Of a DNA stretch of 64,000 nt, positions 24,009 through 39,600 are shown one piece after another; positions within the stretch are counted from its first letter, which is position 1; every line of letters begins with the position of its first letter. The stretch spans positions 1 to 64,000 of the forward strand of contig CAMKKZ010000009.1 in NCBI GenBank assembly GCA_946413525.1. The letters are read 5' to 3'. Position numbers and translations under genes: made by a program. The notes beneath the pieces were generated by a model. It had not been told where the DNA came from and searched no databases. It saw only the letters and a program-made list of their open reading frames with translations. Source of the stretch: an uncultured Oribacterium sp. (GTDB lineage: Bacteria > Bacillota > Clostridia > Lachnospirales > Lachnospiraceae).

Positions 24009-26171
24009 TCAAGGCAAAGCCTGACGCATTACGCCAGGTGACGCGCCTGCATGGGCTTGAGCTCTTTGCGCGGCCCTTTTTTGCCGGAATGCTTCCACAT
24101 CGGCGGCTCTCACGGACTTTCTCCCGCCTGTTTCCGATCCCTGAAGCTCCTGCAAGCTTATTTTCTTCTTTCCTTCCTGTGCCGCTGTTTTATTCGGGCC
24201 ATCCATAAAGGCACTTCGCATCACTAAAGGCGTATATTTAATCGGTGCCTCCTGGTCCAGGGCAGCCATATTGCGTTCAAAGTTTGCCTGTTCGGCGATG
24301 GCCCGCATTTCTTCATACTTTTCCCACTTTTCCAGGCCTCCCTTTTTGCCTAATGTGGCACGTGTCTCCTCAGCTGCTTCTTCAATGGCCCTGGTCCGGG
24401 AACTATCATACATTTGCTGAGTCCTATCCTTTACGATACGCGGAAGCTTTGTGATCCTTGAAAAATAGTTGTTTTCGGAGGCAAAGGCTTCCAGGGGTAT
24501 TCTCTGCAGCGAGCTTTCATCCGGAACGATCAGAAGCTTGTTTTTCGCATAGGGCAGTTGAAATTCCGGCGTAACTGAAGGGTCATAGGCAAACAGGTTC
24601 GCGGGGTCTGAGAGGTAAGATTTCATTGCCTGCAGCCTCATTATGGCGGAACCGATCTCCGTTTTTTCATAGCCCAAATCTGCCAATTGATGGGACAGGG
24701 CCTGGGGCGTGATCTGCAGTATCGTATCCATTGTAGCGCGCGTCATTACCTTAAAAGAGGCCGGCTTTACAAGCTCGGAATGATTGGCAGGAAGATCACC
24801 GAAGCTCAGATCATTATCAATGCCGATCACGCCGGTGACATTAAGTCTTCCCTGAGGATCCATAGCCGTCTGGTAGATCATATTTCCAAGATGGCGATCC
24901 ACATTCCCGCAGATATAATCCAAAACCTGAAGATCCGCAAGATTTCTTTTCAGGGATCCGGATTCCAGCACTTCCGTAGTAATATCATTGTTATGAAACA
25001 TCGTTGCCAGAGGATCGGAGGGACTCAGCCTGGAAATGTCACTTCCGGTGGCCGTATGCATGAAAACTCCATACCTGGTCTCCGATCCGATATGTATGGC
25101 CATTTTTTCCGCCGGAGCCACCAGCCCTTTCATGCCCATGAGATCCGCGACCCGTGCCACAGCAATGTTCCGGGAAGGAATATCACTATCCTCGGAGATC
25201 CCCCATCCCAGGGAAATCTTAGCGGCTTCCTTTCTGCGCCTGGCTTCCGAAGCCGCCTCACGAAATGCCTCCTGCACCTTCGGATTCTTCAGCCACTGAT
25301 TCAGCCTTTTGGATGAGAATTCCTCGGGCTTCGGGGCCGGAAGGCTTTCAAGGAACTCGCCAATAGATTTCATTGTGGCAGGAGTGTCCTTCCCGGCGGA
25401 TTTCCCGCTGTTACGATGAAACAGCCTTGCAAACCGGCTCTGTTCCTTCTGTTCATTTTTAGGTTGAAAATCCGTATCTTCAAAACGCAAAAGCCTGTCT
25501 ATGAGTTCCCCTCCCCTGCTACTTTCCAGGACAGAGGCCAGGGGCTGCAGATCCGACTCGTTTTTAAGGCGTTTCGAGATTTTGAGGGCAATGCGTTCGC
25601 TGTCTTCAATGGGGGTGCTCTCTGTGAAGAAGCCCTTTTGTTCGGAATCGCTTTTTCGGACAGAGAGGGGCAGACGCTCGCTCATCTTGGCGCCGACTGC
25701 GCCGATGCTGTCCGGCCGCTCTACGACAGCCGTAATGCCGCGGGCTTTCTGCAGCAGGTCTGTCATATTGAGTCCATAGGAGAAAGCAGGGTGATCCTCC
25801 TGAAGGATGCCAAGATCCCGGGAAGCGATGTCATGGATCGCCCGTATGCTGTGCAGCCTCTGCGTGCCGTAGCTGGAGCTGCGCTCACTCCCTTTCCCTT
25901 TCATATAAGCATCACAGGCTTCAACCAAAGCCCCGTACGCTTCCCGGATCCGCCCAAGATCCGTTTTGCTCCCAAGGGCTTTGTCATAGAAAGGGCTGCT
26001 GACGCGATGTAGCATATCAATGGCAGCTATCACCCTTTCATATTTTTTGCTGTCACGATGTCTTCCGGCGTCAATACTCTCCAGCTCCTGGATCGCCTGA
26101 TTCAAATGCCTGTCCCTGGATACAAGGGACGGGCCATCCTGCCTTGTTCGGAGGTCGCTTGCCGTTTTCAT
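24009..26171 (-). CDS. large PI3/4-kinase-like protein (DRHxxN ... DND)
   Basis: A 720-aa protein without signal peptide. Residues about 415-460 read LDYICGNVDRHLGNM and, 25 residues later, GVIGIDNDLSFG. This is the catalytic-loop (D425-R-H-x-x-N430) and metal-binding (IDND) layout of the PI3/4-kinase, actin-fragmin-kinase and HipA-like branch of the kinase fold. The region before it (AVARVADLMGM, KMAIHIGSE) could be the N-lobe. The first 300 residues are helical and polar; the C-terminus is Gln/Ala/Arg-rich. It could be a secreted effector or an internal kinase. Start at 26171 behind AGGAGG. Substrate unknown. Confidence 0.65.
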   Translation of the reverse strand: MKTASDLRTRQDGPSLVSRDRHLNQAIQELESIDAGRHRDSKKYERVIAAIDMLHRVSSPFYDKALGSKTDLGRIREAYGALVEACDAYMKGKGSERSSSYGTQRLHSIRAIHDIASRDLGILQEDHPAFSYGLNMTDLLQKARGITAVVERPDSIGAVGAKMSERLPLSVRKSDSEQKGFFTESTPIEDSERIALKISKRLKNESDLQPLASVLESSRGGELIDRLLRFEDTDFQPKNEQKEQSRFARLFHRNSGKSAGKDTPATMKSIGEFLESLPAPKPEEFSSKRLNQWLKNPKVQEAFREAASEARRRKEAAKISLGWGISEDSDIPSRNIAVARVADLMGMKGLVAPAEKMAIHIGSETRYGVFMHTATGSDISRLSPSDPLATMFHNNDITTEVLESGSLKRNLADLQVLDYICGNVDRHLGNMIYQTAMDPQGRLNVTGVIGIDNDLSFGDLPANHSELVKPASFKVMTRATMDTILQITPQALSHQLADLGYEKTEIGSAIMRLQAMKSYLSDPANLFAYDPSVTPEFQLPYAKNKLLIVPDESSLQRIPLEAFASENNYFSRITKLPRIVKDRTQQMYDSSRTRAIEEAAEETRATLGKKGGLEKWEKYEEMRAIAEQANFERNMAALDQEAPIKYTPLVMRSAFMDGPNKTAAQEGKKKISLQELQGSETGGRKSVRAADVEAFRQKRAAQRAQAHAGASPGVMRQALP

Positions 26172-26236
26172 TTCCTTTTCCTCCTGACTATAATACACAG
26201 CCCGCTATGCACGGCCTGCTATACACTGTCTGTTAT

Positions 26237-28266: not shown

Positions 28267-28589
28267 TTTCGTTCCTGCTCCTTTTGTTTCAGCGCCTTCC
28301 AGTGAATGCACAGCAGTGTAACGCAGACCCCCAGCGAAAAGGCGAGCACGCCTACGACGACATACCCAGTATAAGGCGCGGCAAGAAGCAGGCTGCCGTA
28401 ATGCCGCATATCGGCGTTATATGGCAAGACCGTGAGCCGCGGAAGGCAGAAGCAAACCGCGGCCAGCAAGACGGCACAGGCAAAGGAGGCTATCGCGCTG
28501 GCCTGAAAGCGTTTCCGCGCGCTCCTCTTTTCTTTTACGATTTCCGCGCGCCGCATGATTTCCCGCATCTGCTCATCAGTACTGCGCAT
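28263..28589 (-). CDS. anti-sigma-factor-like membrane protein
   Basis: A 108-aa protein: a charged N-terminus (MRSTDEQMREIMRRAEIVKEKRSARKRF) followed by two membrane helices (SFACAVLLAAVCFCLP; YVVVGVLAFSLGVCVTLLCI). Its start lies 14 bases inside the sigma-factor gene, and its stop overlaps the next start. This position, directly behind an ECF-type sigma factor, is the usual place of the membrane-bound anti-sigma factor; here the N-terminal helix would bind the sigma factor. No zinc-binding HxxxCxxC motif is seen. Assignment rests on context. Confidence 0.6.
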   Translation of the reverse strand: MRSTDEQMREIMRRAEIVKEKRSARKRFQASAIASFACAVLLAAVCFCLPRLTVLPYNADMRHYGSLLLAAPYTGYVVVGVLAFSLGVCVTLLCIHWKALKQKEQERK

Positions 28590-29265
28590 AATCAAATCCC
28601 ATCCTTTCCAGCTTCTCCTTAAGTGCCGCCCGGCCACGCTCGGCCAGATGGTAGGTCTGTCGTTTTGTTTTGCCCATGACCTTCCCGGCTTCCTCGTGGG
28701 ACATTTCCTCAAAGTAAAGCAAAATCAGAATCTGCCGGTAATCCTCCTTGAGCCCGCTTAGGGCTTCGTAAAGCTGCCGGTTCCTTTCCTCCCGGAGTAT
28801 GTTCAGTTCCGGTGGACCAACAGCCTCTCCTGTTCGCCCAAAGGACTCTTCATCTATCAGAGTGGGTTTAGGCCGCCCTGAGTCCTGACACAGCGAACCG
28901 CCCGCTGGGGAAAGCGGCTCATCTGTCAGAGCTGCATTTGACCGCTCTGAGTCCTGACACAGCGAACCGCCCACGGGGTAAATCGCCCTGGCAGCGAAGC
29001 GCTGTTTTCTCAGGCGCATCAACGCCATTTTCTTCCCGATGGAAAAGAGCCATGTCTTAAAGGTGCTCTTCCCGGAATAATTCGCGCCTGCCGCCGCTTC
29101 CGCATAGTCGTCCAGCATCAACTCCTCCGCGTCCTCCATATTGTGGACAAAGCTGTAGAGAAAAAGCATAAGGCTCTCCTTGTGCCGCTCCAGCAGGACG
29201 CGGAAGTCAGCCTCGTTACGCTCCGCAAGGTAGCGGCTGTATATCAAATCATCACTTTCAATCAT
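28576..29265 (-). CDS. ECF-type RNA polymerase sigma factor with in-frame repeat insertion
   Basis: A 229-aa sigma-70 family protein. Region 2 is residues about 10-85 (DFRVLLERHKESLMLFLYSFV, STFKTWLFSIGKKMALMRLRK) and region 4 is at the C-terminus (LYEALSGLKEDYRQILILLYF, MSHEEAGKVMGKTKRQTYHLA). Between them lie two copies of the 69-bp hairpin repeat read in frame, giving (V/A)GGSLCQDS twice; they lengthen the flexible linker by about 45 residues. Start at MIESDD (29265) behind GAGGTGG. Likely self-regulated with the downstream membrane proteins. Confidence 0.88.
   Translation of the reverse strand: MIESDDLIYSRYLAERNEADFRVLLERHKESLMLFLYSFVHNMEDAEELMLDDYAEAAAGANYSGKSTFKTWLFSIGKKMALMRLRKQRFAARAIYPVGGSLCQDSERSNAALTDEPLSPAGGSLCQDSGRPKPTLIDEESFGRTGEAVGPPELNILREERNRQLYEALSGLKEDYRQILILLYFEEMSHEEAGKVMGKTKRQTYHLAERGRAALKEKLERMGFDYAQY
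28849..28988 (-). repeat. 69-bp hairpin repeat, two copies inside the sigma-factor gene
   Basis: Two units in gene orientation, in frame, encoding GGSLCQDSERSNAALTDE and GGSLCQDSGRPKPTLIDE. Both keep the CAGAGTG / CACTCTG-type stem partly. Confidence 0.92.
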
Positions 29266-29349
29266 GGCCACCACCTCGCTTATTTCGTGAGTCAACGGGC
29301 TTCCCCTCATTCTCCGGTATGGCTCAGGAAATCCGGAACCTCTGTTTGC

Positions 29350-31042: not shown

Positions 31043-31414
31043 ATGCGCAAAAGAAAACTGATTCGTTTTTTTAAGTATGCTGGCATTGCCCTGTTTGCGA
31101 TTGGTGCCGTTGTCACCGGCTGCTCAAACAGGAAGGGAGGCTCTAAGGATACGGGATCAGAATCGGCATCAAACGGGGTTCGTCCTGAAGGCACTTTATC
31201 ATCAGCTGTTCAGTCTGAAAATGCTGATGACGCTGCCCCAACGCTGGTTGAAATTGACTCGGAAAGAGAGGTCGGAAATCCCGGAGAACAGGAACCCAGG
31301 CCGGTTAACAGGGATGTGCCGAGGATTCCCAACGCAGTTTATTACGGCGCGCCTATGTCATCCAGGGTATCAAGGCTGAACCTGAAGAAGCATTATTTCA
31401 AAAGGTCGGTCTGA
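31043..31414 (+). CDS. precursor-like small lipoprotein 1 (conserved YYGAP tail)
   Basis: A 123-aa protein. Residues 1-27 form a lipoprotein-type signal: MRKRKLIRFF, a hydrophobic core and VVTGC. The middle is a polar, Ser/Asn/Glu-rich spacer without structure. The last ~24 residues (YYGAPMSSRVSRLNL...KRSV) closely match the tail of the next protein, while the middles do not. This is the pattern of a leader-spacer-core precursor. A GTG at 30971 in the same frame also has a possible site (AAGGA), but the ATG at 31043 has AAAGGA eight bases away and begins the signal peptide. Probably first gene of an operon with the radical SAM protein. Confidence 0.7.
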   Translation: MRKRKLIRFFKYAGIALFAIGAVVTGCSNRKGGSKDTGSESASNGVRPEGTLSSAVQSENADDAAPTLVEIDSEREVGNPGEQEPRPVNRDVPRIPNAVYYGAPMSSRVSRLNLKKHYFKRSV

Positions 31415-31512
31415 GAAAGCCGGCAGCCCCGTCCAGTCAAGGTCTTAAGCCTCGTTCTGACTATGGACGGTATTTAGTGTAATGTTTTGTTTTTAAAAAA
31501 GGACGGTGCTTT

Positions 31513-31962
31513 ATGAAAATCAGAAAAAACAAGCTCCTCGCCTGCTTTCTTCTGGCGGCGGCAGCATCCTCCGTCATCACGGGATGCATTCAAAAGGCCG
31601 TGAAATCCGGCAACGGCACAGTACAGAGCAAGGCGGAAGATATTCGTACGGATCAGCGTCCTTCCGAGGAAAGCGGTCCTTCACCCACAGCCTCGGGAAC
31701 CGGAACCGCTGATTCCGCTGCCGCGTCTCCTGAAACAGCTCCGACATCAGGAAACAGAACAGCTCAAGCTTCCGTTAACGAAGCAACACAGGCATCGGCT
31801 GGCAATACAGCACAGGAGGAAGAACAGGATATTATAGACATTGACGATCCTTATGAAAGACGGTACGAGGCCTCTGATAATGAACTGGTTGATTACTACG
31901 GCGCCCCGAATTCCACCCGTGTCAGAATGCTGAATCTTTCCAAAAAACGTTTCAGGAGATAA
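31513..31962 (+). CDS. precursor-like small lipoprotein 2 (conserved YYGAP tail)
   Basis: A 149-aa protein with a signal of the lipoprotein type (MKIRKNKLLACFLLAAAASS, lipobox VITGC at Cys26), a Thr/Ala/Ser-rich spacer with TAQASVNEATQASAGNTAQ-type repeats, and a C-terminal YYGAPNSTRVRMLNL...RFRR that matches protein 1 at YYGAP, RV, LNL, K and a basic end. The segment before it (DIIDIDDPYERRYEASDNEL) is acidic. AAGGAC precedes the ATG by nine bases. Located 98 bp after protein 1 and 284 bp before the radical SAM gene. Could instead be a pair of ordinary surface lipoproteins. Confidence 0.72.
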   Translation: MKIRKNKLLACFLLAAAASSVITGCIQKAVKSGNGTVQSKAEDIRTDQRPSEESGPSPTASGTGTADSAAASPETAPTSGNRTAQASVNEATQASAGNTAQEEEQDIIDIDDPYERRYEASDNELVDYYGAPNSTRVRMLNLSKKRFRR

Positions 31963-31984
31963 TCCGAAAAAGTTTTGCTCTGCC

Positions 31985-32228
31985 ACAAGGGAAGGTGGAC
32001 AAAGCCATGCAGCGGAAAAGCTGCATCCACGCCATGGACAGAAGCCATGGACCAGCCGTGTTCACACCATGGGCAAAGCTGCATTCACGCCATGGAAATG
32101 GCTGCATTATGCCATGAACAGGCTGCATTCACGCCATAGAAATGGCTGCATTATGCCATGGACAGACTGTGTTCACGCCATGGAAATGGCTGCATTATGC
32201 TATGGACAGACTGTAATCACGCTGTGAT
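31985..32228. repeat. 22/23-bp tandem repeats before the radical SAM gene
   Basis: Alternating units CTGCATTCACGCCATGGAAATGG and CTGCATTATGCCATGGACAGA fill the spacer up to the GGAGGG ribosome site of the maturase. They contain many ATG-bearing CCATGG blocks but no long frame. Confidence 0.88.
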
Positions 32229-32246
32229 TCGGAGGGTGATGGTAGT

Positions 32247-34259
32247 ATGTATGACGCAGATCTCAGAATTCTGCTTTTTGAAGTGACCCAGCAATGCAAT
32301 GCGGGCTGTGACCATTGCGGCAGCAGGTGTTCAGCCGGGAACAGCAAGCCGGAGGGCAGCCCTGATTTTTGGAAAAACCGTGATTCGAACGAAAGCCATG
32401 ATTTTAGAGGAAACCGCAATCTGAATACGGGCCGTGATTTGGGTGCAAACCACATTCTGAACGGAAGCCATGATTTGAGAAGAAAACGCGAATCAGGCAA
32501 CGGCAATATTACGGAGGACACACTCATCCGGGCTGATGAAATTCTCGATGTGCTCAGGGATGTAAAGGAAAATTTCGGGACGGATGTCATGATCAATATC
32601 ACCGGCGGCGAGCCCCTGATGCGGAAGGATCTCTTTGACATAATGTCCGAAGCTGATTCCATGGGATTCGACTGGGGCCTCGTGACAAACGGGACGCTGA
32701 TCACGGATGACATAATCAGGAAAATGCGGGAAACGCATATGAAGACGATTACCGTCAGCATTGACGGCCTCCGGGAGACCCACGAGAGCCTGCGGAAACT
32801 CCCCGGATCCTTCGACCGCATTTTCGAGGCCATCCGGAAGCTGAAGGAAGCGGATTTCCTGGACCATCTCCAGGTCACCTTTACCGCCAACAAGAGGAAC
32901 GTGTACGAATTTCCCGAACTCTACCATAAGCTGTGCGGATTGGGCATCGATTCGGTCAGGATCTCCTGCATGGACGACATCGGGCGGGCCATGGAACACA
33001 GGGACCTCCTTCTGGGAAAGGATGAGCTCCTCTTCCTCACCTCGTTCATAAACGAGGCGAATGAAGCATGCCGCGCCCATAACATACGCAGAGCGCGGAA
33101 TGCGCAGATTGACCGGGATGCACAGATTTCACAGATTGAGCGGGATGCACAGATTGCGCAGATTGACCGGGATGCACAGATTTCGCGGATTGACCGGGAT
33201 GCACAGATTGCGCAGATTAACTCGAATGCACAGATTTCGCAGATTGATTCGAATGCACAGATTACACAGATTGAGCGGGATTCTTCGGTTCCGGCTGTCC
33301 CCATCCCGATTGTCTGGGGCTGCCCCCATTACCTTGCCGACAAGCTGAAGGGCCGGGAATTCCTCTGCTTCGCGGGTATTTATGCGGCGAGCATCCTGTA
33401 TAATGGGGACATTTTCGTTTGCCCGAACGTTCCCAGATATCCGGAGCTCATCCAGGGAAATATACGAAGGGACGTATTTTCCTCGGTCTGGAAGCGCGGT
33501 TTCCGGATATTCCGGGAAAAGAAGGAGCATGAATACTGCCTGGACTGCAAATACCGCTGTGAATGTCATGAGGACAGCCTTCATACCTGGGACTTCGAGG
33601 AGGACAGGCCAAAATTCTGTTACAAGAGGATTTTTGATGAAGAGAACAATGAATATGCCGCCTACCTGAAAGCAAAGTACGGTTCTTTCGAGCTGATTTC
33701 CGTCCCTGCCGGGGACGGGGTGGCTCCCGACATTTATATAGAGCCCGAGGCTTATGATGAAATCAGCGCGTATTTCCACATTGGGAAAAGGCATCCATCC
33801 TCCATGTACGAGCAGCAGATGGGGCTTATCGGATTCCGGATCGACCAGGATTACGTGATCAAATACGTCTTCCCCTCCTGGACGGAAAGGCTGGCTCCGG
33901 ACCTCCAGTCCTTTACGGAAGAGACAATGGAACAGGCTCGGAAAGAGCTTAACATCGTCCGCAGGAATTTCAGGAAATCCTCGGACCGGGGAGATTATAT
34001 CGGACGCGGCCTCCGCTTCTTTGGCTTCATCCATTCCCATCCCGCTCAGGAAGAACTTGTATACAGCATCGGGGACGAGCTGATCCATCAGAATCTCCGG
34101 GAAAGGCTCGGGGAATACATCGGCATACTGCTGAACCCCTCCTTGGACCTGATCGGCGCGTATTACGGGAACAAGGACAGCGGGACAGAAATCCGCCAGG
34201 GGAACCTGAAGATTATCCGGCTGCTGCCGGAACCCGCCCGTATAGACGCGCCTGATTAA
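32247..34259 (+). CDS. radical SAM / SPASM protein fused to a JAMM (MPN+) peptidase domain
   Basis: A 670-aa cytosolic protein. Cys17-x3-Cys21-x2-Cys24 (CNAGCDHC) binds the SAM [4Fe-4S] cluster, and ITGGEP lies near residue 120. The SPASM region starts at Cys374 (C-x12-G-x4-C) and ends with CLDCKYRCEC and a later Cys, giving two auxiliary clusters as in peptide maturases. The C-terminal domain has Glu522 (YEQQMGLIGF) and H596-S-H598-P with S607 and D610, the JAMM zinc-peptidase set with one extra residue before the Ser. Two repeat insertions occur: three 12-aa units near residues 45-80 and seven 9-aa units (AQISQIDRD type) near 285-345. GGAGGG lies ten bases before the ATG. Confidence 0.85.
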   Translation: MYDADLRILLFEVTQQCNAGCDHCGSRCSAGNSKPEGSPDFWKNRDSNESHDFRGNRNLNTGRDLGANHILNGSHDLRRKRESGNGNITEDTLIRADEILDVLRDVKENFGTDVMINITGGEPLMRKDLFDIMSEADSMGFDWGLVTNGTLITDDIIRKMRETHMKTITVSIDGLRETHESLRKLPGSFDRIFEAIRKLKEADFLDHLQVTFTANKRNVYEFPELYHKLCGLGIDSVRISCMDDIGRAMEHRDLLLGKDELLFLTSFINEANEACRAHNIRRARNAQIDRDAQISQIERDAQIAQIDRDAQISRIDRDAQIAQINSNAQISQIDSNAQITQIERDSSVPAVPIPIVWGCPHYLADKLKGREFLCFAGIYAASILYNGDIFVCPNVPRYPELIQGNIRRDVFSSVWKRGFRIFREKKEHEYCLDCKYRCECHEDSLHTWDFEEDRPKFCYKRIFDEENNEYAAYLKAKYGSFELISVPAGDGVAPDIYIEPEAYDEISAYFHIGKRHPSSMYEQQMGLIGFRIDQDYVIKYVFPSWTERLAPDLQSFTEETMEQARKELNIVRRNFRKSSDRGDYIGRGLRFFGFIHSHPAQEELVYSIGDELIHQNLRERLGEYIGILLNPSLDLIGAYYGNKDSGTEIRQGNLKIIRLLPEPARIDAPD

Positions 34260-34268
34260 TGTGCCCAC

Positions 34269-34447
34269 TTGACGAGCCTCATCAATTCGCCTTGCTGACG
34301 AGCCTCATCAATGCGCCTTGCTGACGCGCTTCATTAATACGCTTTGTTGACGCGATTCATTAATGCGCTTTGTTGACGAGCCTCATCAATGCGCTTTCCT
34401 GACAGGCCTTATTAACATACCCTGTTGACGCTCTTTATTGCGCCTTG
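34269..34447. repeat. 26-bp tandem repeat after the radical SAM gene
   Basis: GACGAGCCTCATCAATGCGCCTTG-type units at 34271, 34297, 34323, 34349, 34375, 34401 and 34427: exact 26-bp spacing with diverged sequence. No spacers between units. Confidence 0.92.
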
Positions 34448-34485: not shown

Positions 34486-34535
34486 AAAACATAGGACATG
34501 AATGTTACCAGCGGAACATCCATGTCCTATGTTTT
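34486..34535. terminator. bidirectional terminator hairpin
   Basis: AAAACATAGGACATGaATGTT and its complement AACATcCATGTCCTATGTTTT, flanked by A- and T-runs. It separates the radical SAM gene (+) from the antitoxin remnant and flavin reductase (-). Confidence 0.85.
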
Positions 34536-36643: not shown

Positions 36644-39600
36644 CTACTTCTTCACCTTCACGCTCTTCACCACTGACCAGGCAGAATAATACTTCGTCTT
36701 TCCGACCGTCTTGTAGGATCGGATGGAAAGCTTGTACGTCTTCCCCTTTTTCAGCCCTGTCAGGCTCAGCTTCGTCGTCCCGTTCTTCGTTACCGTCTTT
36801 GTTTTCTTCGTATTCCCCAATACATAACGAAGCTCATAGCCGCTTGCCTTCGCGTTCTTCTTCCATTGCGCTCTGATCTTTTTTCCTGTCGTGTTTTTCG
36901 CGGAGGAGAGCGTCGGCCTTGTCAGGTAATAAATCGTCTTCCGGGCGGACGCAGCACCCTTCCCTGTAGCCGCGTACGCATATACCTGGTACTGGTACTT
37001 CGCGCCGTTGGTCTTTGCCTTCTTGTCCGTGTAGCTGAGCGTGCCGGCCTTTTTGATGGTCGCGGCCTTTTTACCATTCCGATAAACATAATAGCCTGTC
37101 GCTCCCGCAACCTTTTTCCAGGAAATCTTCACGCCGCTGGCCGTATTCGCAAGGCTTACGGAAGAGGTCTTTTGCGGGGTCACCTTCAATGTCAGCGTTT
37201 TGGACGCCTTTTTGTAATTCTCCGTGGCGCCCGCCGTCACCGTGAGCTTCACCTCGCCGACCTTCTTTGCCGTAATGACCCCCTTCGATGTCACAACAGC
37301 AATATCCTTATCCGCGCTCTTGTAACCCAGCTTCCCCATGCTGCCGCTTACGATAATGTTTATTTTTCCCGAAACAGGAACAGCGGCTTTCTCCAGAGAT
37401 GCCTCAAGGGTCTGCTCCGCCTTGCTGATTTCAAAACTTTTCTTTACCGTGCCGGAATAATCCCCCTTGCCGCGGACTGTTACGTAAGCCGTGCCGGCAT
37501 TAACATTATCCCCATACGTCAAAGTATAATCCGTTCCGGAAACCAGCGTCTCACCCTCATACACCACCTTAACGGAGGGCTTCCTGGCCTTACCGTTATA
37601 GACGAAGCTTTTTGCGGAAAGGGTAATGACCGCGTCCTTGAGGCTCAGTCCGTCAGAATCATCACTGCCCGAATCCTCACCATCCTCATTGTCTCCCCCG
37701 CTGTCTTCGCTGTCCTCGCCGTCATCCTGCTCTTTCCCCTTCTCCTTTGCTGTCGAAGGGTCATAATTGGCCGATGAGATGCTCAACTCCTTCTTCGTGA
37801 ACAGCTCCTTCGTGTCGCCGTCATAATAATATGAAATGTTCGCGCCGGAATAGATGGTATTGCCCACCTGATAGCTGTCCCAGCTTATAACATAACCGCT
37901 GTCCACAGATCCGGAGGAATAACCAACAAGGAAAAGCCGGTCGTCCGCCCCTACGCCATCCTCATCACAATTCGTCACGTCAACGAAATAATTCTCCCCA
38001 TCATCCATATGGACAATGTTCCACATATGGTCTCCGGCGCCGGTACCGCCGCTCATAACGCCGCTGACCAAAAAGCATTCCAGATCGTCGTCATCGAACT
38101 CACTCAGGTCGCAGAGGTATTTGAAGGCTTTTGAATAGCCCTCGCAGACCACGTTGGTATCCTCGTCGCCATCAAAGACATAGATGAGCTGCCAGGGATT
38201 CGAGTAATTCGCGGCGTCATGCGTCGCATCATAGTCATAAGAAACCAGACCGCAAATCTCCTTTCGGTAATGGACAAGCTTCTCATAATCGGAATATCCC
38301 GCTGCGTCCTCGACAATGCTCATGGCATTGCCTACTGCCGCGGAGGCCGCGCCGGTCTTCGCGGTACTCACATTCAGAAGGTCTGAACTGGTCTTCCGAT
38401 AAGCCCTGGCGACAGAAAACTGGAAGCTGAACTCGGCATCATCCCGAAAACCAATGGACGTACTGCTCCCCAGGATACTCGGACTGGATGAGCCCATGCC
38501 CTCCGTTTTGTCGAACCAGTACAGTTCATAGGGGGAATCCAAAATCAGGGCACTCATGATCCTCCCGGAATCATAATCAAGCTTCTCATAGACAGCCTCC
38601 AGAGCTTCTTCTGTGAAGCTGCCGTTTTTCACAATAGCGGACACACCGAGCTCCTCGGCAGTAAAGGAGGTTTGCTCCTGAAGCTCCGACACGGGAATGC
38701 TGAACTCCGTTGACTCCCTTTGTCCATCCGCGATTTCGCTAATGCCTTCCTTCAGTATATCATAAATCTCCTTCTCCAGGTCGCTCAGGCCTTCCCTCCT
38801 GTCCTCCTGGAGCACGGCCTCATCCTCCCCCTTCATGGGATACATGAGCCTGTCCAGATATTGCCCCAGCAGCATATCCCCGTCCGGAAGCTCAATATCG
38901 CGGACAGAAACAGGCTCGCCCTCTTGGATAATGACATCTTCCTGGACAATAGCATTCTCCTGGGTAATGGCATCCTCTTGGACAATGTCTTTCTCCTGCG
39001 TAATGGCATCCTCTTGGACAATGTCTTTCTCCTGCGTAATGGCATCCTCCTGAGTAATGTCTTCCTCCTGGATAATGGCTTCTTCTTGTGTAATGTCTTC
39101 CTCCTGAATAATGGCTTCTTCTTGTGTAATGTCTTCCTCCCGGATAATGGCCTCTTCTTGTGTAATGTCTTCCTCCCGGATAATGGCCTCTTCCCGGACG
39201 GATTCCTCCTCCTGATTAGAGGAATCCTCCGAATTTACAAAATCTTCCTGATTTGTAAGATCTTCCTGATTCGCAAATACTTCCTGATTCGCAAGCTCTT
39301 CCTGACTGGAACCATCCTCAGACTCCTCAGTTTCATGTCCGATGAATTCTTCATCCAGCTCATCAGTGCCCTCGTCCGGATTTAGCGCACCCTCGTCCGA
39401 ATCAATAAGCTCTTCACTCTGGACATCCGCGCTTTCGCCCAAAGCATTTGCGCCATTGTCTGCATCATCGGCGCTTTCAGCCAAAACATCCGTGCCCTCG
39501 TCTGCCTCATCAGCTCCTTCTTCCGCGCTTATTTTGGGGATTTTCTCCGAAACAGATTCAGAATCAGGTACATCCTCCTCAACAGCCTTGACACCTTCAC

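What the first reader, a model, noticed from the sequence alone, without database searches (positions are those of the whole stretch)
31043..34259. Candidate new peptide-modification system: two tail-sharing small proteins plus a radical SAM-SPASM-JAMM fusion
Seen: two adjacent small proteins (123 and 149 aa) have unrelated middles but nearly the same C-terminal ~22 residues: YYGAP(M/N)S(S/T)RV, then LNL, Lys and a basic end. They directly precede a protein with CxxxCxxC, SPASM cysteines and a zinc-peptidase motif. Known: RiPP pathways pair a small precursor with a radical SAM/SPASM maturase and a protease. Inference: the YYGAP tail is the modified core, with the maturase forming crosslinks and the JAMM domain cutting or trimming. 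I do not recall a described family with this tail or this fusion.
Basis: partly seen in the sequence, partly recalled or inferred. Interest (0 to 1): 0.88.

Follow-up and report, generated by a model that had tools for sequence, protein, structure and literature searches.

The report
JAMM-fused radical SAM lipoprotein-tail modifier
A rare bacterial gene set pairs tiny membrane-anchored proteins that share one tail with an enzyme that probably rewrites that tail chemically and may then trim it, an arrangement I found no description of.

Summary
Two small lipoproteins (31043-31414, 31513-31962) share a tail, YYGAP[MN]S[ST]RVxxLNL, far beyond chance, directly upstream of a radical SAM/SPASM protein (32247-34259) with a JAMM-like C-terminal domain. 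The pairing is conserved: all six rSAM-JAMM genes I found have adjacent tail-bearing precursors, ten in all. In 397 family genomes, strong tail matches occur only in the two that also carry the rSAM-JAMM gene.

The rSAM part is not an orphan. Its nearest named model is NCBIfam TIGR04133 'rSAM_w_lipo'. In a core-only tree it groups (96/92) with 13 same-family relatives, 9 of which have a same-strand neighbour with YGPP motifs. The same Y-G-x-P signature is in the published PlpXY splice tag (LYGLP) and in a Nostoc Nif11 precursor (LYGLPPELF). My best guess is therefore tyramine excision at Y-Y-G (a splicease, -135 Da) rather than a -2 Da crosslink, with the JAMM domain cutting or gripping the basic tail. 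New variant of a known kind.

The parts
31043..31414 (+). precursor A, 123 aa lipoprotein, lipobox-like VTGC, tail YYGAPMSSRVSRLNLKKHYFKRSV
   Evidence: tail match E 2.8e-13 (the window's own tails are part of that profile)
31340..31411 (+). shared tail of precursor A; predicted modified site Y-Y-G at its start
   Evidence: alignment of 9 precursors: Y, Y, G, P, S, L, L, K of the tail invariant
31513..31962 (+). precursor B, 149 aa lipoprotein, lipobox-like ITGC, tail YYGAPNSTRVRMLNLSKKRFRR
   Evidence: tail match E 4.3e-14 (same caveat)
31894..31959 (+). shared tail of precursor B
32247..34259 (+). radical SAM / SPASM / JAMM-like fusion protein, 670 aa
   Evidence: Pfam Radical_SAM and SPASM over cut-off; best NCBIfam TIGR04133 at 181.8 bits, cut-off 425; five relatives 55-60% identical
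32295..32318 (+). C17-x3-C21-x2-C24 radical SAM cluster motif
   Evidence: sequence; invariant in the 4 full-length proteins
33366..33620 (+). SPASM region: C374...C392...C431-x2-C434-x5-C440-x2-D443...C458
   Evidence: Pfam SPASM residues 374-435; these residues invariant in 6 of 6
33633..34256 (+). C-terminal JAMM-like domain, with Glu522, His596, His598, Ser607, Asp610
32331..32504 (+). in-frame low-complexity insert (about 58 residues) absent from the 3 relatives
   Evidence: alignment; repeats at 32383-32480
33075..33302 (+). second in-frame insert (about 76 residues), mostly a 27-base unit x 6.6
   Evidence: alignment; repeats at 33103-33281

Best explanation
A two-component surface-protein modification system. 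Small exported, membrane-anchored precursors carry a C-terminal substrate tail, YYG[CA]P[NM]S..(V/I)..L(N/I)L.K. A cytoplasmic enzyme made of a radical SAM/SPASM maturase fused to a JAMM-like domain binds the tail before export. [quoted passage not shown] The JAMM part recognises, or hydrolyses within, the conserved basic segment downstream (V..LNL.K), like a follower peptide. The product is a lipid-anchored protein presenting a modified, electrophilic terminus outside the cell. Shown: gene pairing, tail conservation, invariant catalytic-type residues, kinship of the rSAM part with enzymes that have YGxP partners. Inferred: the substrate role of the tail, the chemistry, the JAMM activity, the order of steps, the product's use.
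For: Pairing: 6 of 6 rSAM-JAMM genes (window, L005, L006, L007, L010, L016) have adjacent tail proteins, 10 in all; by eye 10 of 10 start with a hydrophobic segment and 9 of 10 have a lipobox-like Cys. Co-occurrence: in 397 family genomes the JAMM profile A2 hits 2 (G356 was not in that profile), and the tail profile hits the same 2 at E <= 1.1e-12, all other hits being E >= 0.0088 (the four strong tails are in that profile, so what informs is their absence elsewhere). Selection, L006 against L007: lipoprotein 16 of 61 third positions differ against 4 of 122 others; enzyme 166 of 529 against 60 of 1058. Chemistry lead: the rSAM core groups with 13 same-family enzymes (96/92), 9 of which have a same-strand YGPP neighbour, 8 of these lipoprotein-like by eye. 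Over the 29 TIGR04133-like matches, a same-strand small neighbour with YG.P occurs in 14, against 2 for the reversed motif and a mean of 2.7 for shuffled neighbours; of the 14, L029 is the JAMM locus of G356 and L024 looks like chance. Parabacteroides, Phocaeicola and Treponema partners carry EYGSP, EYGTP, CYGMP. A Nostoc Nif11 precursor beside a TIGR04103 enzyme ends SIALYGLPPELF, and the published PlpXY splice tag holds LYGLP (PMC10533398, passages). JAMM: hhalign E 8.2e-05, pairing Glu522 with the Prok-JAB Glu and HSHP with HSHP.
Against: The PlpX-family model TIGR04103 is only the fifth NCBIfam hit (87.9 bits, cut-off 725), and in the tree the Nostoc TIGR04103 enzyme lies in the other half, so the chemistry could differ. 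I saw no separate PlpY-like partner gene at the rSAM-JAMM loci (by eye; no RRE model was run). Of the 29 TIGR04133-like loci, five (L017, L035, L038, L041, L044) show no YG.P, YGP or YAGP small neighbour on the same strand (L033 and L037 show one only on the other strand or overlapping), and four (L039, L040, L042, L045) show Y-A-G-P, which is not X-Y-G. JAMM spacing is HxH-x8-SxxD, not the published HxH-x7-SxxD (PMC300881). There is no Pfam hit over cut-off; the window domain's own best is Toxin-JAB1 at E 0.21. The domain might be a binding module without activity. No structure could be predicted.
Confidence: 0.42

Rival explanations
1. The enzyme forms a crosslink in the tail (for example a three-residue cyclophane from Tyr over Gly to the third residue, or a Tyr-based C-C or ether bond), and the JAMM domain trims it, as the first reader proposed (-2 Da).
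For: SPASM rSAM enzymes commonly crosslink peptides (established knowledge; reviews in the listing). Y-G-x has an aromatic residue and a third residue with a beta carbon. PapB, mycofactocin and WgkB models are also among the 25 hits shown.
Against: The third residue is C, A, P, Y, V, S, T, M or L across the partners seen, so no fixed partner. The Cys of YYGCP is Ala in the window. What is shared is Y-G-x-P, which matches a published splice tag.
Confidence: 0.25
2. The JAMM-like domain is not a protease here but a substrate-binding module that replaces the N-terminal extension or separate RRE of related enzymes; the tail stays whole and is only modified.
For: The motif spacing is one residue longer than the published one (sequence; PMC300881) and there is no Pfam hit over cut-off. 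The JAMM-type enzymes start close to the rSAM motif, without the roughly 20-30 residue extension of the TIGR04133 members read (sequences).
Against: Glu522, His596, His598, Ser607 and Asp610 are invariant in 6 of 6, which a mere binding fold would not need.
Confidence: 0.3
3. The tail is a sorting or anchoring signal and the rSAM-JAMM enzyme is a neighbour with another substrate.
For: The tails end in basic residues, and the proteins look membrane-anchored (by eye).
Against: Tail and rSAM-JAMM gene occur together and not apart in 397 genomes, and they are adjacent in 6 of 6 loci.
Confidence: 0.05

Closest known systems
NCBIfam TIGR04133 (rSAM_w_lipo) with 'radical SAM-associated putative lipoprotein' (TIGR04134, accession recalled)
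   Same: Radical SAM/SPASM enzyme beside a lipoprotein with a YGxP motif (Parabacteroides EYGSP, Treponema CYGMP); best NCBIfam hit of the window enzyme.
   Different: Window enzyme scores 181.8 and L010 243.2 bits against a cut-off of 425; it has a C-terminal JAMM-like domain, and the motif lies in a C-terminal tail rather than soon after the lipobox.
Same-family TIGR04133-like enzymes with YGPP-repeat lipoproteins (e.g. G023, L011/L022)
   Same: Nearest clade to the window enzyme (96/92 for the joint set); lipoprotein-like partners with Y-G-P-P.
   Different: No JAMM domain; repeated motifs such as VYGPPEWF through the protein instead of one terminal tail.
Spliceases / spliceotides (PlpXY; Morinaka 2018 and Scott 2022, known to me through passages of PMC10533398 and PMC11002830)
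   Same: SPASM radical SAM enzyme acting at X-Y-G; splice tag LYGLP shares YGxP with these tails.
   Different: Different NCBIfam model (TIGR04103; that it equals IPR026482 is recalled), a separate PlpY partner, Nif11 or nitrile-hydratase-like leaders instead of lipoprotein signals; no JAMM domain mentioned in the passages.
JAMM/MPN+ metalloproteases (AfJAMM, AMSH/sst2, Prok-JAB)
   Same: E...HxHP...SxxD residues; hhalign E 8.2e-05 to Prok-JAB; AMSH-like sst2 best in the PDB at E 0.017. Bacterial DRJAMM cuts a linear fusion leaving a C-terminal Gly (PMC8832034, passages).
   Different: One residue longer between the second His and Ser; fused to a radical SAM enzyme; no ubiquitin-like substrate seen.

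Membership tests
radical SAM/SPASM proteins | radical SAM and SPASM domains over Pfam cut-off | tested here: met
   67.1 bits (cut-off 29.5) and 31.4 bits (cut-off 21.5)
TIGR04133 rSAM_w_lipo | score over curated cut-off 425 bits | tested here: not met
   window 181.8, L010 243.2
TIGR04133 rSAM_w_lipo | adjacent lipoprotein gene | tested here: met
   adjacent small anchored proteins in 6 of 6 rSAM-JAMM loci; lipobox judged by eye
TIGR04134-type lipoprotein | match to the NCBIfam lipoprotein model | tested here: not met
   no such hit for either small protein at E <= 1
spliceases | X-Y-G in the substrate | tested here: met
   Y-Y-G in 10 of 10 precursors (9, the tenth); that they are the substrates is inferred
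spliceases | PlpX-type enzyme (TIGR04103) | tested here: not met
   87.9 bits against cut-off 725
spliceases | PlpY-like RRE partner | tested here: inconclusive
   no such small gene seen by eye next to the rSAM-JAMM genes; no RRE model was run
spliceases | tyramine excision, -135.07 Da | not testable with these tools
   needs co-expression and mass spectrometry
JAMM/MPN+ | EXnHS/THX7SXXD motif | tested here: inconclusive
   Glu, HSH, SxxD invariant in 6 of 6, but X8 in place of X7
JAMM/MPN+ | Pfam JAB/Prok-JAB over cut-off | tested here: not met
   best E 0.0034 (Prok-JAB) and 0.024 (JAB), each in 1 of 6 members; window member none of these
JAMM/MPN+ | JAMM fold | not tested
   structure prediction switched off

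The most novel reading that the evidence does not exclude
A splicease fused to its own JAMM metalloprotease. It converts the Y-Y-G of a lipid-anchored precursor into an alpha-ketoamide residue and then cuts off the conserved basic follower, so that these bacteria display a ribosomally encoded electrophilic warhead (for instance a protease trap) on their surface. JAMM enzymes would then act in peptide maturation as well as in ubiquitin-like or sulfur-carrier systems.
Probability: 0.2. Interest if true: 0.85.

Novelty: new variant of a known kind. Interest (0 to 1): 0.68.

Why it matters
It would be a radical SAM maturase carrying a JAMM-type protease in one chain, with a short C-terminal tail as the only clearly conserved part of its substrates beyond the signal, hence a natural transferable tag. 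It also joins three things that my searches did not show linked in print: TIGR04133 lipoprotein systems, YGPP-repeat lipoproteins of the window's family, and X-Y-G spliceases, through one Y-G-x-P motif. That makes the function of a named but, as far as I found, uncharacterised NCBIfam pairing directly testable by one mass measurement.

Tried and rejected
Chance resemblance of the two tails: rejected. Recent tandem duplication of DNA: rejected, since the middles do not align above shuffles and only 4 of 13 identical residues share a codon. Cys-based thioether as the common chemistry: rejected for the window, where the position is Ala. Phage or plasmid carriage: the L006 enzyme has no match in phages at 1e-20, and its 6 plasmid records, none covering 80% of the query, are matched in the N-terminal part; the JAMM profile A4 finds no relative in viral contigs. 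Wider spread: the JAMM profile hits only the window's own genome in 391 class genomes and 199 phylum genomes; the window's JAMM domain as a single query hits only its own genome in 195 relatives, with 0 of 16 same-genus genomes; the sets overlap. The full enzyme at 1e-30 hit the window's genome and G023 (no JAMM domain) in 61 relatives.

A check made on revision: the first tree kept 492 columns, which may include C-terminal extensions, so I rebuilt it on the rSAM/SPASM core alone (371 columns). The JAMM group stays one set (100/99) and joins the 13 YGPP-labelled rows (96/92).

Literature: one search found 0 papers with TIGR04133, TIGR04134 or the lipoprotein name. One search listed 20 of 116, none with TIGR04133. 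One search listed 15 of 168, none of them with JAMM. One search listed 12 of 330, none of them with radical SAM. One search listed 15 of 25, none with VYGPP, YYGCP or YYGAP. Searches (20 of 24 listed; 15 of 21 listed) gave splicease papers. So a radical SAM-JAMM fusion is absent only from the rows shown. Passages of PMC8939145 (JAB 0 times) and PMC10352776 (lipoprotein, TIGR04133, JAMM 0 times) show no such system. Scott 2022 (Chem) is not held and may describe part of this; I know it only as cited in PMC10533398 and PMC11002830.
Full report
WHAT IS THERE. Three + strand genes lie in a row: precursor A (31043-31414), precursor B (31513-31962) and a 670-residue enzyme (32247-34259), each with a purine-rich stretch ahead of its ATG. 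A and B have lipobox-like ends of their hydrophobic starts (VTGC, ITGC; by eye), unrelated middles and one shared tail. From YYG on, 13 of 20 residues agree. The best ungapped score of the two mature proteins is 70 against a shuffled mean of 30.5 and maximum of 57 (1000 shuffles), while the middles alone are at chance (28; 793 of 1000 shuffles as high). Only 4 of the 13 agreeing residues use the same codon. The enzyme has Radical_SAM and SPASM domains over Pfam cut-off and a further 208 residues with HSHP-x7-SxxD.

IS IT CONSERVED. A scan of genome contigs (one genome for each of 84,980 species) with the C-terminal domain gave three relatives, L005-L007, all titled Lachnospiraceae MAGs; with a single sequence as query this scan reaches close relatives only. 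With the window that makes six, the five others 55-60% identical to the window enzyme. The window's family is not named by the tools; Lachnospiraceae is my inference from the named relatives. All six have tail-bearing small proteins directly beside the enzyme: two in the window, one in L005, two in L006, two in L007, two in L010 (one before and one after the enzyme) and one in L016, whose contig ends inside the enzyme gene. Nine of these ten aligned give an invariant Y-Y-G-x-P-x-S...L-x-L-x-K; the fourth tail residue is Ala in the window and Cys in the eight others. By eye, all ten begin with a hydrophobic segment and nine have a lipobox-like Cys; the L005 one lacks it. A tail profile run over 397 family genomes finds E <= 1.1e-12 only in the window's genome and G356, two tails each, exactly the two genomes in which the JAMM profile hits. 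These four tails are in the tail profile, so the informative part is the absence elsewhere: nine other genomes gave one match each at E 0.0088-0.048, at the level of chance. L006 and L007 differ mainly at third codon positions in both genes. The system is sporadic: 0 of 16 same-genus genomes, 2 of 4 genomes in the genus of G356, and only the window's own genome in 391 class and 199 phylum genomes; the sets overlap.

WHAT THE ENZYME IS KIN TO. The best NCBIfam model is TIGR04133 'rSAM_w_lipo' (181.8 bits for the window, 243.2 for L010, cut-off 425). Members over the cut-off beside annotated 'radical SAM-associated putative lipoprotein' genes were read in Parabacteroides and Treponema. Their lipoproteins hold CEYGSP and CYGMP, and one beside an unannotated Phocaeicola relative holds CEYGTP. 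A TIGR04133 search of 299 family genomes gave 29 matches in 26 genomes at 1e-40, none over the cut-off. Many neighbours are striking: proteins with up to seven YGPP units (L026), up to six KYGYP units (L036), or repeated VYAGP. Counting a same-strand small neighbour with YG.P: 14 of 29 loci, against 2 of 29 for the reversed motif and a mean of 2.7 of 29 for shuffled neighbours. Of the 14, L029 is the JAMM locus of G356, and the L024 hit lies in an unrelated hydrolase-like protein (another L024 ORF has YGPMP). Seven loci show none of YG.P, YGP, YAGP in that count (L017, L033, L035, L037, L038, L041, L044); L033 and L037 have one if the other strand or overlap is allowed. In a tree of 38 enzymes on the rSAM/SPASM core alone, the six JAMM enzymes form one set (100/99) and join 13 same-family enzymes labelled YGPP (96/92). 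Nine of these 13 have a same-strand YGPP neighbour, eight of them lipoprotein-like and one (L018) a membrane protein (by eye). In the wider first tree, the three TIGR04133-type enzymes come next, and TIGR04103-like, GDL and YAGP enzymes form the other half. One origin of the fusion is not ruled out by either tree.

WHY SPLICEASE CHEMISTRY. [quoted passage not shown] one of its splice tags is GPIRPLYGLPI; the authors speak of 27 other characterised and 939 predicted systems (PMC10533398, passages). PlpX is assigned to IPR026482 with the RRE partner PlpY (PMC11002830, passages); that this entry equals TIGR04103 is my recollection. A Nostoc plasmid shows a like layout: a Nif11 precursor ending SIALYGLPPELF, a TIGR04103-named enzyme and a small ORF. 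So Y-G-x-P runs from splicease substrates through YGPP and EYGSP lipoproteins to the window's YYGAP. This is an argument from motif and kinship, not a demonstration: TIGR04103 is only the fifth hit of the window enzyme (87.9 bits, cut-off 725), and a crosslink of Tyr to the third residue remains possible.

THE JAMM-LIKE PART. Glu522, His596, His598, Ser607 and Asp610 are invariant in six of six. Single sequences reach only E 0.0034 (Prok-JAB) and 0.024 (JAB), each in one of six members; the window's own best is Toxin-JAB1 at 0.21; none is over cut-off. The profile's top solved structures are AMSH-like JAMM proteases at E 0.017. hhalign to seven Prok-JAB-type proteins gives E 8.2e-05, probability 60.8, with Glu522 on the catalytic-type Glu and HSHP on HSHP; the control with rSAM sequences gives 0.36. 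Against the published motif EXnHS/THX7SXXD (PMC300881, abstract and passages) the window domain has one residue more between the second His and Ser, so activity is not assured. A bacterial JAMM that cuts a linear fusion and leaves a terminal Gly is known (DRJAMM, PMC8832034, passages), which fits a cut near Y-Y-G or in the follower.

MECHANISM PROPOSED. The enzyme starts at the rSAM motif without a signal peptide (by eye), the precursors have one, so modification should precede export. Beyond the signal, the tail is the only common part of the substrates and should hold recognition and target. Y-Y-G-x-P is the likely target; V..L.L.K the likely follower. The JAMM domain, which sits where some other members of the wider group carry other C-terminal extensions, either cuts or holds the follower. 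The exported product would be a lipid-anchored protein with a modified end. Use as a surface protease trap is a guess from the reported use of this moiety in protease inhibition (PMC11002830, passage).

VERDICT. Observation confirmed. Pairing strongly supported. Chemistry re-assigned with moderate confidence. New variant of the radical SAM/lipoprotein kind, with a domain fusion that I did not find in the search rows named under Tried and rejected.

Noticed in passing
window 33103-33281, 32383-32480, 32061-32222, 34245-34431, 38920-39199: Tandem repeats with units of about 13-78 bases inside genes and between them; two lie in frame in the enzyme gene and are absent from the three relatives aligned.
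   Followed up: partly
L034, L036, L043 (neighbours of TIGR04133/TIGR04103-like enzymes): Proteins with four to six Y-G-Y-P units beside radical SAM enzymes that carry a C-terminal extension of roughly 140 residues.
   Followed up: partly
L039, L040, L042, L045: Neighbour proteins with repeated Y-A-G-P (often VYAGPE), a shift of the Y-G-x-P theme, beside a separate clade of radical SAM enzymes.
   Followed up: partly
L047 3693-3863, L048 3281-3493: Some DUF1843 (GDL system) precursors also carry an early Y-G (QPYGAGIREA, RPYGPAMVEA), which hints that this system too might act at Tyr-Gly; the other DUF1843 proteins read do not have it.
   Followed up: no
window 24009-26198, - strand: 729-residue protein with a Pfam PI3/PI4-kinase-like match (8.7e-07) in a bacterium.
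   Followed up: no
window 34487-34534: Long inverted repeat (20 pairs counted) after the enzyme gene.
   Followed up: no
window 28576-29310, - strand: Sigma-70-type factor gene upstream on the other strand; link to the system unknown.
   Followed up: no
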